Part shown: piece after piece, positions 1 to 28,035 of the stretch | Position numbering within the stretch: position 1 is the stretch's first letter | Layout of the letters: every line of letters starts with the position of its first letter | Assembly: GCA_024684955.1 (NCBI GenBank) | Contig: JAIKWH010000062.1 | Location: forward strand, 1 to 64,000 | Length of the DNA stretch: 64,000 nucleotides | Direction: 5' to 3' | Origin: Pseudobutyrivibrio sp. | GTDB lineage: Bacteria > Bacillota > Clostridia > Lachnospirales > Lachnospiraceae | Notes under the pieces: model-generated | What the model was told of the DNA's origin: nothing | Seen by the model: the letters and a program-made list of their open reading frames with translations, nothing else | Database searches by the model: none | Position numbers and translations under genes: made by a program

Positions 1-1
1 T

Positions 2-754
2 GTAAAAGCAAGTATAGAAATGAGTTTCAGTGGCACAATTTCAAACGTAAGCGAGAACAAAATATCTGGAAAGAAAAGAATACAGCCAGAAGAAAGTGCA
101 GTTGATAAATATATTTCAAAGCATCCAGATAGAAAAGCAGATGTTGAAAAAATGGTTAGCGCAGGCAACAATGTCATTAAGCAGTATCTTGGTGAAAATT
201 ATAATCCAGATGATTTATCATTAGAAGAATACAAAGAATTAATAAATAATGTTATTTCAAGAATTCCATATGATTCTAGTCAGTTAAATGATATAGAGTA
301 TCTGAATATTACAGAAGACGGTTATAAACAGATGAAATCTGATCCTAAGTATGAAGCTTGGGTTCTAGGATATTTCAAGATAGATAGAGCAGTTCATTTT
401 CCGTTTGGAGCACAGGGAAATTATCATGCAGAACATTTTGGAGCTTCAATAGAGGAACATCATGGTGAAAGTTATCCTATGGAATTAGATAATGGAAAAG
501 ACGACGATAGCTGGTGGGAAAAACGTAAAAAGCGTCATGATATGCTGATGGAGCAGATGGAAAAATACTACGAAAAACGTCGTAATGAGCGTGAAGCTGC
601 TATGAAGAAAAATGCTGGTAAAATCACAGTCACAGATACAGCCGCAATTTTTAGCTCAGTAGGTGCAAACAATACTCTTGATGACAGTAGCTACCTAGGA
701 GATGAAACCAGTGCAGCAGCAGAGTTTTTTATGATGATTGCATCTGGAAATTGA
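2..754 (+). CDS. unknown protein, 5' end outside window
   Basis: I do not recognise this protein. The reading frame is open to the left edge; the first ATG is at 20, but the 19 bases before it contain no purine-rich ribosome binding site, unlike nearly every other gene here, so the true start is probably upstream. The visible protein is about 250 residues, hydrophilic, without signal peptide or membrane segment. A central conserved-looking part holds aromatic and His-rich motifs (AEHFGASIEEHHGE), followed by a highly charged helical stretch (WWEKRKKRHDMLMEQMEKYYEKRRNERE) and a small-residue-rich tail. It is followed by a strong terminator, so it ends a transcription unit. Coding nature is supported by length, codon use and the terminator; the function is unknown. 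Confidence 0.75.
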   Translation, partial: VKASIEMSFSGTISNVSENKISGKKRIQPEESAVDKYISKHPDRKADVEKMVSAGNNVIKQYLGENYNPDDLSLEEYKELINNVISRIPYDSSQLNDIEYLNITEDGYKQMKSDPKYEAWVLGYFKIDRAVHFPFGAQGNYHAEHFGASIEEHHGESYPMELDNGKDDDSWWEKRKKRHDMLMEQMEKYYEKRRNEREAAMKKNAGKITVTDTAAIFSSVGANNTLDDSSYLGDETSAAAEFFMMIASGN

Positions 755-910: not shown

Positions 911-1153
911 ATGTCATATTTAATCAGTGAAACCACAAAGGAAGAAAGAGAACAGATAGTGAAAGATTCCTTGGGAAATATTGAGGCTAACTGTGATGGT
1001 TGCATGGCGGGGTTGGCCGATATGTACCAGGATTACATAGATGGTAAAAAGGAACTTAGGGAAATCAACATGGAATTTAATGCTAGATATGTCCATGGTG
1101 ATAATGATAGGGATGATATGAGTTCTGGTTCTAACATGTTTTGCAATAATTAA
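911..1153 (+). CDS. small unknown protein (80 aa)
   Basis: Start chosen at ATG 911, six bases after GGAGG; the track start at 896 lies upstream of that ribosome binding site. The 80-residue acidic protein begins MSYLISETTKEEREQIV and has an internal CDGCMAG motif with two cysteines and a YQDYIDGKKELREIN helix. No signal peptide or membrane segment. The tail is Asp/Ser/Asn-rich and may be disordered. It lies 36 bases before the RyR-domain membrane protein and is probably co-transcribed with it. I know of no function; the compact size and pairing would suit an accessory or regulatory partner, but that is inference. Confidence 0.75.
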   Translation: MSYLISETTKEEREQIVKDSLGNIEANCDGCMAGLADMYQDYIDGKKELREINMEFNARYVHGDNDRDDMSSGSNMFCNN

Positions 1154-1189
1154 CATTGAGCCTATAGGTGTTTTTATAAGGGAAAAGTG

Positions 1190-2683
1190 ATGAAGGGTAA
1201 AAATATATTTGGATTTATATTGACTTTGCTAGTCGTCTTATCGGCTGCTATGGGTACTTATGGATATTGTTTAGTCTATGATGATTTTTTCAATGCTGCC
1301 TTTAATGCCTTGATGCTGTTTGTACTGGGCATTGATGGAGAGGCTCCAAATGTCTGGGTAGCTATAGCCAGGTGGATTGCCCCTATTACTACAGCCAGTG
1401 GAGTATTGTCAGCCTTTGGACCAGCAAAAAGGCTCATATCAAACAAGTTTAAAATATTATTATTCAAGAAAAAAACAGTGGCTCTCTATGGTCCAGAGGA
1501 ATATATTGAAAAACTCCAGGAGGAGAACCAAATAATGGATGACTATGTCCTCCTGGACACAGACTGCGGTAGACAATTTGTGTCAGGGGCAGGCAGGTAT
1601 GTTTTGTTGTGGTCAGACGAGGAAAATGGTCAGTTTCTGGGCAGGTACAATATTGAGTTGGAAGGTAAGGAGGTATACTTCCTTAGCCAAGTTTATGAGC
1701 CAATGATATCTGAGAATATTAATTTTCACCCTATAAAGGAAGAGTTTCAGGCTGCTAGAAAATATTGGAAGGAAAATCCATTATTTGATGGATTTAATAA
1801 TACAAACCCAGAGTATAAGGATGTTAGAGTAACAATTATAGGATTTGAGGACCTGGGAGAGATGATAATGACCCAGGGTCTTCTGCTTAATATTATTCAT
1901 CCAAAGCAAAGCATCATTTATGATATTTTTCCAGGGGAAGAGTTTTCCTCTGTTAACAAGGGAAAATATTACAAGCAAAGGGAAAAGTTCCTTAATCTTC
2001 ACTGCCAGTTAGACAAGATTTGTGATGAGATTATTTTTCATGATAATGCCTGGTATGAGGACAAGGATTTGCTAAAGAAATCAAGCAGAGTAATTATTAC
2101 AGATGTGGATGAATCTGCAAGAGTTCTCCAGGATATTGTAAAATCAATTCCTCCAAAGGCACTGACAGAGGCGAGAATTGATGTGTTTACAAACGATTCT
2201 GAGAGAATGCAAAAGACTTTGGACAAGGCCTACAATATCAATGTCATAGAATATAGGCAACTGAGCCTGGAGGATATTATAGGAGATAGGTTGATAGAGG
2301 CAGCCAAGGAATATAATTATAATTATTTTCTGGAGTATGTCAGCCAGACCAAGGTATACTCAAAGAAAGAGCGAGACCAGGAGTGGGATAAACTCAATTC
2401 ATTCAAAAAGTATTCTAACATTGCCTCAGCGGACTATGATGTTATCCGAGGCCTAATTGCAGATGCCTGTGACGGGGATATAGATTTGCTGAAAGAGTTG
2501 GAGCATATCAGATGGGAGAGATTCCACTATGTTAACAACTGGTCTAGGGCTACAGGGGATGTTACAAAGGATGAAGGCCTGTGGCTTCACAGTGATTTGG
2601 TGCCATTTGAAGAACTGACAATAGAAGAGCAGAATAAGGATGTCAGTCAGATTATGCATTTTATTAGATCTAGGAAAAAGTAA
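1190..2683 (+). CDS. membrane protein with TrkA-N/RCK-like region and C-terminal RyR domain
   Basis: Start placed at ATG 1190, seven bases after AAGGG; the track's GTG at 1187 is adjacent. The 497-residue protein has an N-terminal membrane module: a helix at about 5-27, a short amphipathic or pore-like segment (FFNAAFNALMLFVLGI, about 34-49) and a helix at about 56-78. A cytoplasmic region follows; VTIIGFEDLGEMIM (about 213) resembles the nucleotide-binding start of an RCK/TrkA-N fold. The last about 70 residues (LEHIRWERFHYVNNW ... LVPFEEL ... NKDVSQIM) match the pattern of bacterial ryanodine-receptor (RyR) domains. Bacterial proteins of this layout have been proposed from comparative genomics to be ligand-gated channels or sensors, some in conflict systems. 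The actual ligand and ion are unknown. Ends before a terminator. Confidence 0.72.
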   Translation: MKGKNIFGFILTLLVVLSAAMGTYGYCLVYDDFFNAAFNALMLFVLGIDGEAPNVWVAIARWIAPITTASGVLSAFGPAKRLISNKFKILLFKKKTVALYGPEEYIEKLQEENQIMDDYVLLDTDCGRQFVSGAGRYVLLWSDEENGQFLGRYNIELEGKEVYFLSQVYEPMISENINFHPIKEEFQAARKYWKENPLFDGFNNTNPEYKDVRVTIIGFEDLGEMIMTQGLLLNIIHPKQSIIYDIFPGEEFSSVNKGKYYKQREKFLNLHCQLDKICDEIIFHDNAWYEDKDLLKKSSRVIITDVDESARVLQDIVKSIPPKALTEARIDVFTNDSERMQKTLDKAYNINVIEYRQLSLEDIIGDRLIEAAKEYNYNYFLEYVSQTKVYSKKERDQEWDKLNSFKKYSNIASADYDVIRGLIADACDGDIDLLKELEHIRWERFHYVNNWSRATGDVTKDEGLWLHSDLVPFEELTIEEQNKDVSQIMHFIRSRKK

Positions 2684-2698
2684 ATAAACAAAGATTTG

Positions 2699-2731
2699 CC
2701 AGGTGGTTTTAGGACTGCCTGGTATTTTTTT
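2699..2731 (+). terminator. intrinsic terminator
   Basis: Stem CCAGGTGGT / ACTGCCTGG (nine pairs with G-T wobbles) followed by a T tract. It separates the RyR-domain gene from the PadR operon. Confidence 0.85.
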
Positions 2732-2741
2732 ATATAAAGTG

Positions 2742-2770
2742 TTGACATACTACGACAGCCGTAGTACTAT
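2742..2770 (+). promoter_or_regulatory. sigma-A promoter of PadR operon
   Basis: TTGACA (2742-2747), 17-base spacer, TACTAT (2765-2770). The spacer is almost entirely occupied by the first operator repeat, so a bound repressor would block RNA polymerase. Confidence 0.88.
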
Positions 2771-2805
2771 AGACATACCACGACAGACGTAGTACGATAA
2801 TCGTA
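2748..2805 (+). promoter_or_regulatory. three inverted-repeat operators
   Basis: Two near-identical dyads, TACTACG-N5-CGTAGTA (2748-2766) and TACCACG-N5-CGTAGTA (2776-2794), have centres 28 bp apart. A third, shorter dyad TACGA-TAA-TCGTA (2793-2805) overlaps the end of the second. The first sits between -35 and -10 and the others lie downstream of the start site. The next gene encodes a PadR-type repressor, so autoregulation is the simplest reading. Confidence 0.8.
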
Positions 2806-25041: not shown

Positions 25042-26436
25042 ATGAAAGACAAAATTCAATCTTTTGGCCGATTCCTTTCTGGAATGGTCATGCCAAACAT
25101 CGGCGCGCTGATCGCCTGGGGACTTATTACAGCACTGTTCATCGCAACAGGTTGGTTGCCAAATGAACAACTTAGCACAATGGTAGGACCATTCCTGCAG
25201 TACGTTATTCCAGTTCTTATTGCTTATCAAGGTGGTAAGATGGTTGGCGGACAGCGTGGTGGTATCATGGGTGTTATCGCTACAGTTGGTGTTATCTGTG
25301 GTGAGCCAAACTACACAATGCTTATGGGCGCAATGCTCATGGGACCTTTAGCAGGTTGGGTTATCAAGCAGTTTGACAAGGCTGTTGATGGAAAGATCAA
25401 GGCTGGTTTCGAGATGCTTGTTAACAACTTCTCAGTAGGTATTCTTGGTATGCTTATGGCAATCCTTGGATTCTATGTAATCGGACCTGTTATGGGTGCA
25501 CTTCTTGCAGTATTAAACGGTGGTGTTGATATTCTTGTTAATAACAACGTACTTCCACTTGTTTCAGTTTTCGTTGAGCCTGCAAAGGTTCTCTTCCTTA
25601 ACAACGCTATCAACCATGGTATCTTTACACCACTTGGTGCTCAGCAGGTTGAGGAAATGGGAAGATCAATCTTCTACATGATCGAGACTAACCCTGGTTC
25701 AGGTACAGGTGTAATCCTTGCTTACTGGTTATTCTCAAAGGATAAGACAACACGTGATTCAGCACCAGGTGCACTTATCGTTCACCTCCTTGGTGGTATT
25801 CACGAAATCTATTTCCCATATGTACTTATGAATCCACTGCTTCTTCTTGCAACAATCGGTGGTTCAGTAGTAGCTATGTTCTACAACACAATCTTTGATC
25901 TTGGTCTTGCAGGTCCTGCATCTCCTGGTTCAATCTTTGCATACGTAGGTATGGCAGCAAAGGGACAGACAGTAGCTGTATTCTTCAGTGCTGTTATCGC
26001 AGCAGCAGTTTCATTCGTAATCGCTGCTCCAATCGTTAAACTTGCAAATCCTAAGTCTGATCTTGAGGATGCAACAGCTCAGATGAAGTCTATGAAGGCT
26101 GAGTCAAAGGGCCAGACAGTTGCTTCTACAGCAAATGTTGATTTAAAGGCAGTTAAGGCTATCGTATTTGCATGTGATGCAGGTATGGGTTCAAGCGCAA
26201 TGGGCGCAACAGTTATGCAGAAGAAACTTGACGATGCAGGTCTTGGAGATATCAAGGTTTCTCACTCATCAGTTTCTGAAATCCCAGCAGGTACAAACTT
26301 CGTTATCTGCCACAAGGATTTAGTTGGTCGTGCAACAACAAGTGCTCCAGGAGCTAGGATTGTTACAATCTCTAACTTCATGAATGCACCTGAGTATGAT
26401 CAGGTTGTAGCTGAAATTAAGGCTGCTCGCAATTAA
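25042..26436 (+). CDS. PTS mannitol-type transporter, EIICB
   Basis: 464 residues. The IIC membrane domain spans about 1-340 (LSGMVMPNIGALIAWGLITALF; the conserved GGIHEIYFPYVLM near 253). After a short linker a IIB domain follows, with the phosphorylated Cys378 in FACDAGMGSSAMGA. There is no IIA domain. It takes up and phosphorylates a hexitol, mannitol by similarity. The next gene encodes a near-identical IIC fused to IIA, so the two together carry all domains of a full MtlA. Codon use is strongly biased, suggesting high expression. Confidence 0.92.
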   Translation: MKDKIQSFGRFLSGMVMPNIGALIAWGLITALFIATGWLPNEQLSTMVGPFLQYVIPVLIAYQGGKMVGGQRGGIMGVIATVGVICGEPNYTMLMGAMLMGPLAGWVIKQFDKAVDGKIKAGFEMLVNNFSVGILGMLMAILGFYVIGPVMGALLAVLNGGVDILVNNNVLPLVSVFVEPAKVLFLNNAINHGIFTPLGAQQVEEMGRSIFYMIETNPGSGTGVILAYWLFSKDKTTRDSAPGALIVHLLGGIHEIYFPYVLMNPLLLLATIGGSVVAMFYNTIFDLGLAGPASPGSIFAYVGMAAKGQTVAVFFSAVIAAAVSFVIAAPIVKLANPKSDLEDATAQMKSMKAESKGQTVASTANVDLKAVKAIVFACDAGMGSSAMGATVMQKKLDDAGLGDIKVSHSSVSEIPAGTNFVICHKDLVGRATTSAPGARIVTISNFMNAPEYDQVVAEIKAARN

Positions 26437-26466
26437 TTAATTCTCATAGACAAAGGAAAAAAGAGA

Positions 26467-28035
26467 ATGAAAGATAAAATTCAATCATTTGGCCGTTTCC
26501 TTAGCGGAATGGTAATGCCAAATATCGGGGCCCTGATTGCATGGGGACTTATTACAGCATTGTTCATCGCAACAGGCTGGTTACCAAACGAAGAATTAAG
26601 CACAATGGTAGGACCATTCCTGTCTTATGTTATTCCGGTTCTTATCGCCTTCCAAGGCGGTAAGATGGTAGCCGGACAGCGTGGTGCGGTTATGGGTGTT
26701 ATCGCTACAGTTGGTGTTATCTGTGGTGAGCCAAACTACACAATGCTCATGGGCGCTATGCTCATGGGACCTTTAGCAGGTTGGGTTATCAAGCAGTTTG
26801 ACAAGGCTGTTGATGGAAAGATCAAGGCCGGTTTCGAGATGCTTGTTAACAACTTCTCAGTAGGTATTCTTGGTATGCTTATGGCAATCCTTGGATTCTA
26901 TGTAATCGGACCTGTTATGGGCGCAATTCTTGCAGTATTAAATGGTGGAGTTGATGTTCTTGTTAACAACAACTTACTTCCACTTGTTTCTATATTCGTT
27001 GAGCCTGCAAAGGTTCTATTCCTTAACAATGCTATCAACCATGGTATTTTTACACCACTTGGTGCTCAGCAGGTTGAGGAAATGGGAAGGTCAATTTTCT
27101 ACATGATCGAGACAAACCCAGGTTCAGGTACAGGTGTAATCCTTGCTTACTGGTTATTCTCAAAGGATAAATTGACAAGGGATTCTGCCCCAGGTGCACT
27201 TATCGTTCACCTTCTCGGAGGAATTCACGAGATTTACTTCCCATATGTCCTTATGAATCCACTGCTTCTTCTTGCAACAATCGGTGGTTCAGTAGTGGCT
27301 ATGTTCTACAACACAATCTTTGATCTTGGTCTTGCAGGTCCTGCATCTCCTGGTTCAATCTTTGCATACGTAGGTATGGCAGCAAAGGGACAGACTATAG
27401 CAGTACTTTTCAGTGCGGTTATAGCAGCAGCTGTGTCATTTGTAATTGCAGTTCCTATAGTTAGACTTGCAAATCCAAAGACAGAGAGTCTTGAGGATGC
27501 AACAGCTCAGATGAAGTCTATGAAGGCTGAATCTAAAGGAGAGACAGTAGTGGCACCTGCAAAGGAAGACACTGTTGCTTGTCCTGAATCAAATGATTCA
27601 CAGGATTATCGCGATGGGGTTTTGCTTAAGAAGAATATTATTCTTAATACAACTGCTAAAACAAAAGAAGAGGCAGTTAAGTTGATTGGCGAAATGTTCT
27701 GTAAATGTGGTTATACCACTCCTAAATATACAGAGGCTATGTTAGAAAAAGAAAAAGTTTTCAATACATACCTCGGAAATGGTGTTTCTATTCCTCACGG
27801 AGTAGAAGAGATGAGAAGTGAAATTCTCAACTCAGGTGTAGTAGTGCTCACAAGCCGTGATGGCATTGATTGGGGCAATGGCAATAAGGCTAACCTTATT
27901 GTTGGTGTTGCTTCAGTTGGTGATGAGCATATGAAGACTTTACAGAATATTGCATTACACTGTGGAAGCCCAGCAGATGTTGAAAAGATCATTAACCTGG
28001 ACGTAGATGGTGTATATGACATTTTCAAAGGTTAA
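26467..28035 (+). CDS. PTS mannitol-type transporter, EIICA
   Basis: 522 residues. The first about 340 are a IIC domain differing from the upstream copy at only about 16 positions by eye. The C-terminal part (about 380-522) is a mannitol/fructose-type IIA domain with phosphorylated His444 in SIPHGVEEM. There is no IIB domain. It would receive phosphate from HPr through IIA and pass it to the IIB of the neighbouring protein. The pair seems to come from duplication with complementary domain loss. Confidence 0.92.
   Translation: MKDKIQSFGRFLSGMVMPNIGALIAWGLITALFIATGWLPNEELSTMVGPFLSYVIPVLIAFQGGKMVAGQRGAVMGVIATVGVICGEPNYTMLMGAMLMGPLAGWVIKQFDKAVDGKIKAGFEMLVNNFSVGILGMLMAILGFYVIGPVMGAILAVLNGGVDVLVNNNLLPLVSIFVEPAKVLFLNNAINHGIFTPLGAQQVEEMGRSIFYMIETNPGSGTGVILAYWLFSKDKLTRDSAPGALIVHLLGGIHEIYFPYVLMNPLLLLATIGGSVVAMFYNTIFDLGLAGPASPGSIFAYVGMAAKGQTIAVLFSAVIAAAVSFVIAVPIVRLANPKTESLEDATAQMKSMKAESKGETVVAPAKEDTVACPESNDSQDYRDGVLLKKNIILNTTAKTKEEAVKLIGEMFCKCGYTTPKYTEAMLEKEKVFNTYLGNGVSIPHGVEEMRSEILNSGVVVLTSRDGIDWGNGNKANLIVGVASVGDEHMKTLQNIALHCGSPADVEKIINLDVDGVYDIFKG

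What the first reader, a model, noticed from the sequence alone, without database searches (positions are those of the whole stretch)
911..2683. RyR-domain membrane protein with a small coupled partner
A three-segment membrane module resembling an ion pore, an RCK-N-like region and a C-terminal RyR domain form a possible ligand-gated channel. A small cysteine-containing unknown protein is encoded immediately upstream. Bacterial RyR domains are poorly understood and some have been placed by comparative genomics in conflict systems. No other defence gene is seen in the window.
Basis: partly seen in the sequence, partly recalled or inferred. Interest (0 to 1): 0.6.

Follow-up and report, generated by a model that had tools for sequence, protein, structure and literature searches.

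The report
Bacterial RyR channel tied to TIRs
A gut bacterium carries a membrane protein built like a gated ion channel whose tail resembles the regulatory domain of animal ryanodine receptors, and in about half of its relatives the gene sits beside an NAD-consuming TIR immune gene, suggesting (not yet shown) that an NAD-derived alarm molecule opens it during phage attack.

Summary
Window 1190-2683 encodes a 497-aa protein: an MthK-like two-helix pore without a K+ filter, two Rossmann (RCK-like) domains and a C-terminal RyR/R12 domain (AF2 pLDDT 91.7). It keeps all four residues with which phage RyR proteins bind cADPR (H439, W442, H467, D484).

The proposed small partner is not a partner: it occurs in 24/29 congeneric genomes, the RyR gene in 2/29, and they are together only here.

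The important finding is in the relatives. Of 89 non-redundant filterless RyR loci, 37 have a TIR gene immediately next door, 11 more have one within three genes, and 5 adjoin a DUF4062 TIR-like NADase; at 4-10 genes away there are 0 TIRs in 622 genes. The TIRs carry many different sensor modules, all keep the catalytic glutamate, and the linkage is scattered over the tree. Best reading: a membrane effector gated by TIR-made ADP-ribose signals, Thoeris-like but with an RyR-RCK-pore effector.

The window's own copy is an orphan: no TIR in the window, one propeller-TIR on another contig. Ligand, conductance and defence are inferred. One relevant preprint could not be read, so priority is uncertain.

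The parts
1190..2683 (+). RyR-domain membrane protein, 497 aa (ATG 1190; GTG 1187 also possible)
   Evidence: AF2 pLDDT 91.7 pTM 0.87
1196..1279 (+). M1 transmembrane helix (residues 3-30)
   Evidence: AF2 model; hydropathy
1286..1324 (+). pore-helix-like segment (residues 33-45)
   Evidence: AF2; hhalign places it opposite the pore helix of the TVGYGD relatives
1325..1348 (+). position of the K+ selectivity filter; no TVGYGD here (residues 46-53)
1352..1474 (+). M2, long helix continuing into the cytosolic part (residues 55-95); A60, R61, A64 nearly invariant
1475..1819 (+). first Rossmann/RCK-like domain (residues 96-210)
   Evidence: AF2 and Foldseek
1823..2254 (+). second Rossmann/RCK-like domain (residues 212-355), GFxxxG motif
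2363..2677 (+). RyR / R12 domain (residues 392-496)
2504..2506 (+). H439, position of RyDEP catalytic H75
   Evidence: H in 70/70 relatives; PMC13232231
2513..2515 (+). W442, position of RyDEP W78 (adenine stacking)
   Evidence: W in 70/70
2588..2590 (+). H467, position of RyDEP H100 (phosphate contact)
   Evidence: H in 70/70
2639..2641 (+). D484, position of RyDEP catalytic D117
   Evidence: D in 66/70, N in 4
2697..2724 (+). terminator-like hairpin with T tail that ends the RyR unit
911..1153 (+). small CxxC protein P0002, 80 aa; genus-conserved neighbour, not part of the system

Best explanation
The protein is a membrane effector gated by an ADP-ribose-type signal. When infection is sensed, a TIR (or TIR-like DUF4062) protein consumes NAD+ and releases an ADP-ribose-derived molecule. 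The RyR domain binds that molecule in the pocket that phage RyR proteins use for 2'/3'cADPR. The change passes through the RCK-like Rossmann domains to a tetrameric MthK-like pore that has lost its K+ filter; the pore opens non-selectively or disrupts the membrane and stops growth of the infected cell. Shown here: the architecture, the conserved pocket, and the tight, repeated linkage to catalytically intact TIR genes in relatives. Inferred: the ligand, gating, conductance, tetramer and antiphage outcome. The window copy has no adjacent TIR. It may answer the unlinked TIR-propeller protein of its own genome, or be an orphan.
For: Linkage: 37/89 non-redundant filterless RyR loci have a TIR gene as immediate neighbour, 11 more within three genes, 5 adjoin DUF4062; about 0.13 adjacent pairs expected from 102 TIR_2 hits in 50 whole genomes; 0 TIRs in 622 genes at offsets 4-10. 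26 adjacent pairs are co-directional, 15 with gaps of 50 bp or less. The linkage is scattered over the tree (at least 16 changes forced by well-supported branches). TIR partners: Pfam TIR_2 in 47/48, joined to TPR, Sel1, MORN, beta-propeller or AAA_16 modules; the catalytic Glu column is E in 48/48. Pfam alone, without my own TIR profile, already shows adjacent TIRs in 8 of the 18 other filterless genomes of the first set. Sensor: RyDEP pocket residues invariant or nearly so, with the binding and cleavage data of PMC13232231. Pore: MthK-like model and full-length homology to the TVGYGD channel clade (hhalign 100%, E 2.9e-60), itself matching KvAP and KcsA (E 2e-17 and 2e-14). Own-genome TIR: G000:C23:61904-64885, same family as the TIRs placed beside or near RyR genes on the opposite strand in L111, L118, L119, L133, L150, L157.
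Against: No TIR or DUF4062 gene lies near the window copy, and the contig starts only 19 bp before the upstream gene. The genome's TIR is found in 14/29 congeners, most of which lack RyR, so it is not dedicated to RyR. 36/89 relatives also lack a linked TIR (9 of them near contig ends). The window protein has the second-longest branch on the tree (2.02) and alone falls below Pfam's RyR cut-off. No ligand, current or phage phenotype has been measured. The K+ filter is missing, so ion conduction is uncertain. Loci are not statistically independent.
Confidence: 0.57

Rival explanations
1. It is an off-switch: a membrane-anchored cADPR hydrolase or sponge that removes or buffers TIR products, like phage RyDEP, and protects the cell from its own TIR.
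For: The RyDEP catalytic dyad H75/D117 is kept as H439/D484; linkage to TIRs fits a regulator as well as an effector; PMC13232231 reports both hydrolysing and sequestering RyR proteins.
Against: A soluble domain would suffice; the family conserves a pore-like 2-TM module and RCK-like domains. In PMC13232231 the other tested homologues, despite high sequence conservation, did not hydrolyse the signals. A regulator would be expected to accompany another effector gene, which is not seen in most pairs.
Confidence: 0.15
2. It is a housekeeping or stress channel: an RCK-gated ion pathway regulated by ADP-ribose or NAD metabolites with no role in immunity; the TIR linkage reflects shared residence in variable islands.
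For: The sister clade has a genuine TVGYGD filter and few linked TIRs; 36/89 filterless members are unlinked.
Against: TIR enrichment is confined to the nearest genes (37/170 at offset 1, 0/622 at offsets 4-10), which an island effect would not give; patchy presence (39/299 family genomes, 2/29 of the genus) is unlike housekeeping.
Confidence: 0.2
3. One reading: RyR protein and the small upstream CxxC protein P0002 form a dedicated two-component unit.
For: 36-bp gap, same strand, no terminator between them, terminators on both outer sides.
Against: P0002 is in 24/29 congeners, the others of which lack RyR; RyR is in one other congener, which lacks P0002. No other locus examined pairs them.
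Confidence: 0.04

Closest known systems
Thoeris (TIR enzyme + signal-activated effector)
   Same: TIR gene with catalytic Glu next to a gene with an ADPR-signal-binding-type domain; linked TIRs carry varied sensor modules
   Different: Effector is an RyR-RCK-pore protein, not the SIR2-SLOG, macro-TM or caspase-like effectors described in the held papers and reference lists; the window copy has no linked TIR; no activity data
RyDEP and other phage RyR (R12, PF02026) proteins (PMC13232231)
   Same: R12 fold and all four ligand/catalytic residues (H, W, H, D)
   Different: Host-encoded, fused to Rossmann domains and a membrane pore; no hit to P0001 in the phage collection
RCK-gated K+ channels (MthK)
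   Same: M1-pore helix-M2 topology with cytosolic Rossmann/RCK-like domains; best Foldseek match of the isolated pore; sister clade carries TVGYGD
   Different: Selectivity filter lost; extra C-terminal RyR sensor
Animal ryanodine receptor R12 repeat domain
   Same: Homologous RyR domain attached to a channel
   Different: Animal RyR is about 5000 residues with a different pore; whether cADPR binds it directly is disputed (own knowledge)
Swarozyc / DUF4062 TIR-like NADases (PMC13174449)
   Same: DUF4062-STAND proteins adjoin five RyR loci (three confirmed by Pfam)
   Different: Swarozyc was reported to act by NAD+ depletion; a coupled RyR effector is not mentioned in that paper

Membership tests
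RyR / R12 domain (PF02026) | Sequence profile match | tested here: met
   Window protein alone 12.6 bits, below the 27.4 cut-off, but 69/70 aligned relatives match at E<0.01 and the family profile matches RyR structures at 9e-13
RyR / R12 domain (PF02026) | Ligand pocket H..W, H, D | tested here: met
   H439, W442, H467, D484
RyR / R12 domain (PF02026) | R12 fold | tested here: met
   AF2 model and Foldseek to phage RyR proteins, prob 1.00
Thoeris | TIR enzyme encoded in the same operon | tested here: not met
   Not in the window; nearest TIR on another contig. Met in 37/89 relatives as immediate neighbours
Thoeris | Effector of a described Thoeris type | tested here: not met
   No PADLOC model matches the window protein; its relatives give only stray weak hits. 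PADLOC copy is of 2023
Thoeris | Effector activated by an ADPR-derived signal | not testable with these tools
   Only pocket conservation available
Thoeris | Antiphage activity | not testable with these tools
   Needs phage challenge
K+ channel (MthK type) | 2-TM + pore-helix topology | tested here: met
   (Foldseek E-values weak)
K+ channel (MthK type) | T-V-G-Y-G selectivity filter | tested here: not met
   Absent in window protein and clade; present in sister clade
K+ channel (MthK type) | RCK-like Rossmann domain | tested here: met
   GFGxxG-type motif, with E at one Gly in the window protein
RyDEP-type cADPR hydrolase | Hydrolysis of 2'/3'cADPR | not testable with these tools
   Dyad residues present; the other tested homologues were inactive in PMC13232231
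P0001-P0002 pair | Conserved co-occurrence | tested here: not met

The most novel reading that the evidence does not exclude
A widespread immune system of gut Bacillota in which TIR or DUF4062 sensors make an ADP-ribose signal that opens a filterless, RCK-coupled membrane pore through a ryanodine-receptor R12 domain: a bacterial cADPR-gated RyR-type channel, implying that the R12 repeats of animal RyRs come from an ADP-ribose-signal sensor.
Probability: 0.42. Interest if true: 0.87.

Novelty: new variant of a known kind. Interest (0 to 1): 0.68.

Why it matters
Whether cyclic ADP-ribose acts directly on ryanodine receptors has long been disputed. A 497-residue bacterial protein that joins an RyR domain to an MthK-like pore, and whose relatives sit beside the enzyme family that makes such signals, would make the question testable in a small system. 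It would also add a membrane-pore effector to TIR signalling, give a host-side counterpart to the phage RyR proteins that destroy or soak up the same signals, and link the new DUF4062 NADases to a possible effector.

Tried and rejected
P0002 as partner: rejected by genus-wide co-occurrence. A conserved RNA leader upstream of P0002: no Rfam match, and the leader is not shared among congeners. Phage or plasmid carriage: no match. Other defence genes in the window: PADLOC hits among the 46 proteins scanned are generic families (WYL, ATPases and the like). Defence-island effect as the reason for TIR linkage: rejected by the fall-off with distance. Full-length Foldseek did not return K+ channels (Rossmann domains dominate), so the pore was folded and searched alone. 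A dedicated own-genome TIR: the propeller-TIR is in 14/29 congeners, so it is not dedicated. Literature searches for a cellular TIR-RyR channel system found none in the held library; the preprint most likely to contain it, bioRxiv 2025.12.03.692087, is not held.

Full report
Observation. The window is bases 1-64000 of one contig of an incomplete 2.26-Mb genome (86% complete, 84 contigs). The 497-aa protein gives a confident AF2 model when aligned with 69 relatives (pLDDT 91.7, pTM 0.87): helices 3-30, 33-45 and 55-95, then two Rossmann domains, then an all-helical C-terminal domain. The isolated first 95 residues, folded separately, match MthK, NaK, KcsA and Kv pores almost exclusively (best MthK, prob 0.96, TM 0.54; E-values are weak, 0.2 and up). 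Single-sequence Pfam support for RyR is weak, but phmmer to RyR1 structures (7e-4), the family profile (9e-13), Pfam on relatives (69/70) and Foldseek to phage RyR proteins (prob 1.00) agree.

Pore. Eleven relatives from the same bacterial family carry a canonical TVGYGD filter or its one-letter variant, and their profile matches KvAP (2e-17) and KcsA (2e-14). Profile-profile comparison aligns the filterless family to them over 441 columns, pore included (E 2.9e-60). In the filterless clade the pore helix remains and the filter is replaced by a variable loop, followed by a conserved N-xx-x-E-I-A-R-W-x-A-P stretch at the start of M2. So this is a channel-derived module; whether it still conducts ions, and which, is unknown.

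Sensor. [quoted passage not shown] The same residues are here H439, W442, H467 and D484: 70/70, 70/70, 70/70 and 66/70 across the family, with the same H-to-W and H-to-D spacings (3 and 17). The residue correspondence was made by motif and spacing, not by structural superposition with RyDEP.

The proposed partner. P0002 homologues occur in 24 of 29 genomes of the genus, mostly 80-90% identical, while P0001 occurs in 2 of 29, and the other P0001 genome has no P0002. The PadR-linked operon downstream is present in 28 of 29 and, in near-complete congeners such as G325 and G299, lies hundreds of kilobases from P0002. The RyR gene is thus an accessory gene placed between two genus-conserved neighbours. 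In this genome P0002 and RyR may share a transcript, since terminator-like hairpins lie only outside the pair, but no conserved coupling exists.

Neighbours of relatives. Homologues occur in 39 of 299 genomes drawn from the same family, and 257 encoding places were found in the GTDB-based collection, the 80 best mainly from Lachnospiraceae and Oscillospiraceae. I called genes around 89 non-redundant filterless RyR loci. TIR genes were found with a profile built from Pfam-defined TIR segments and then confirmed with Pfam: TIR_2 in 47 of 48. TIR genes are immediate neighbours in 37 loci and lie within three genes in 11 more. By distance: offset 1, 37 of 170 genes; offset 2, 8 of 156; offset 3, 5 of 142; offsets 4-10, 0 of 622. 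Genome-wide density (102 TIR_2 hits in 50 genomes) predicts about 0.13 adjacent pairs; loci are related, so this is not a formal probability. The own profile was trained on TIRs near RyR genes and could miss other TIR types farther away, but Pfam alone already shows adjacency in 8 of the 18 other filterless genomes of the first set. Of the adjacent pairs 26 are co-directional, 15 of these with gaps of 50 bp or less. Five further loci adjoin DUF4062 genes, Pfam-confirmed in L116 and L117 and in G175. DUF4062 is the TIR-like NADase of PMC13174449. On the tree the linkage needs at least 16 changes, so association has arisen or been lost many times, with different TIR architectures: TIR-TPR, TIR-AAA-TPR, TIR-MORN, TIR-Sel1, TIR-propeller. 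All 48 partner TIRs have Glu at the column that I take, from knowledge of TIR NADases, to be the catalytic one.

The window copy. No TIR or DUF4062 gene is near. The genome has one TIR_2 hit, a 994-aa TIR-TM-propeller protein on contig 23, in the same family as TIRs placed on the opposite strand beside or near RyR genes in six other loci but present in 14 of 29 congeners, most without RyR. DUF4062 is absent from the genome. The window protein sits inside the filterless clade on a long branch (2.02). Its function in trans, or as an orphan, is open.

Mechanism. Shown: architecture, pocket conservation, tight and recurrent linkage to catalytically intact TIR or TIR-like genes. Inferred: the TIR product is the ligand, binding is relayed through the Rossmann domains, the pore opens or breaks the membrane, and infected cells stop growing. 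Rivals are a membrane-anchored signal remover (RyDEP-like) and a metabolic channel; both are less well supported.

Known or new. I did not find a TIR-RyR channel system in the papers searched; PADLOC has no model for it. RyDEP (PMC13232231) concerns phage proteins. A preprint on TIR signalling systems (bioRxiv 2025.12.03.692087) could not be read and may already contain it. I therefore file it as a new variant of a known kind (TIR-derived nucleotide signalling), works-like Thoeris, without claiming membership.

Noticed in passing
L035 gene 7; L116 gene 6, L120 gene 7, L142 gene 6, L145 gene 4; also L066 gene 4, L067 gene 7: A second RyR protein (about 550-800 aa), in which an HD-like region (motifs such as FHDIGYP, by eye) precedes a C-terminal RyR domain, directly adjoins the RyR channel gene, with a TIR or DUF4062 gene nearby. 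Possibly a signal phosphodiesterase or a second effector.
   Followed up: partly
L059, L061, L063, L064: Overlapping or abutting gene pairs: a 600-720 aa filterless RCK-RyR protein followed by a 520-540 aa RCK-RyR protein, TVGYGD-bearing in the one read; suggests heteromeric channels.
   Followed up: partly
window 911-1153; G000:C32:4916-5254: P0002 is a genus-conserved 75-80 aa protein with a CDGCM motif, no Pfam or NCBIfam match, and about 50%-identical paralogues in many congeners.
   Followed up: partly
window 2742-2805: Repeated CTACGACAG/CGTAGTA-type inverted motifs overlapping a promoter-like site just before the PadR gene; likely the PadR operator.
   Followed up: no
window 25042-28035: Two tandem PTS-permease-like genes (464 and 522 aa) with nearly identical N-termini, apparently a recent duplication.
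   Followed up: no
window 1-19: The window starts at the contig end, so what lies upstream of the 244-aa ORF (20-754) is unknown.
   Followed up: no
L099 gene +1; one other TIR-less neighbour: Some RyR loci without TIR adjoin other defence-like genes: a HerA ATPase in L099 and a SWI2/SNF2 DpdE/ZorD-like helicase next to one RyR gene.
   Followed up: no
L044 genes 5-7: A three-gene co-directional cluster TIR - membrane nSTAND ATPase - RyR channel.
   Followed up: no
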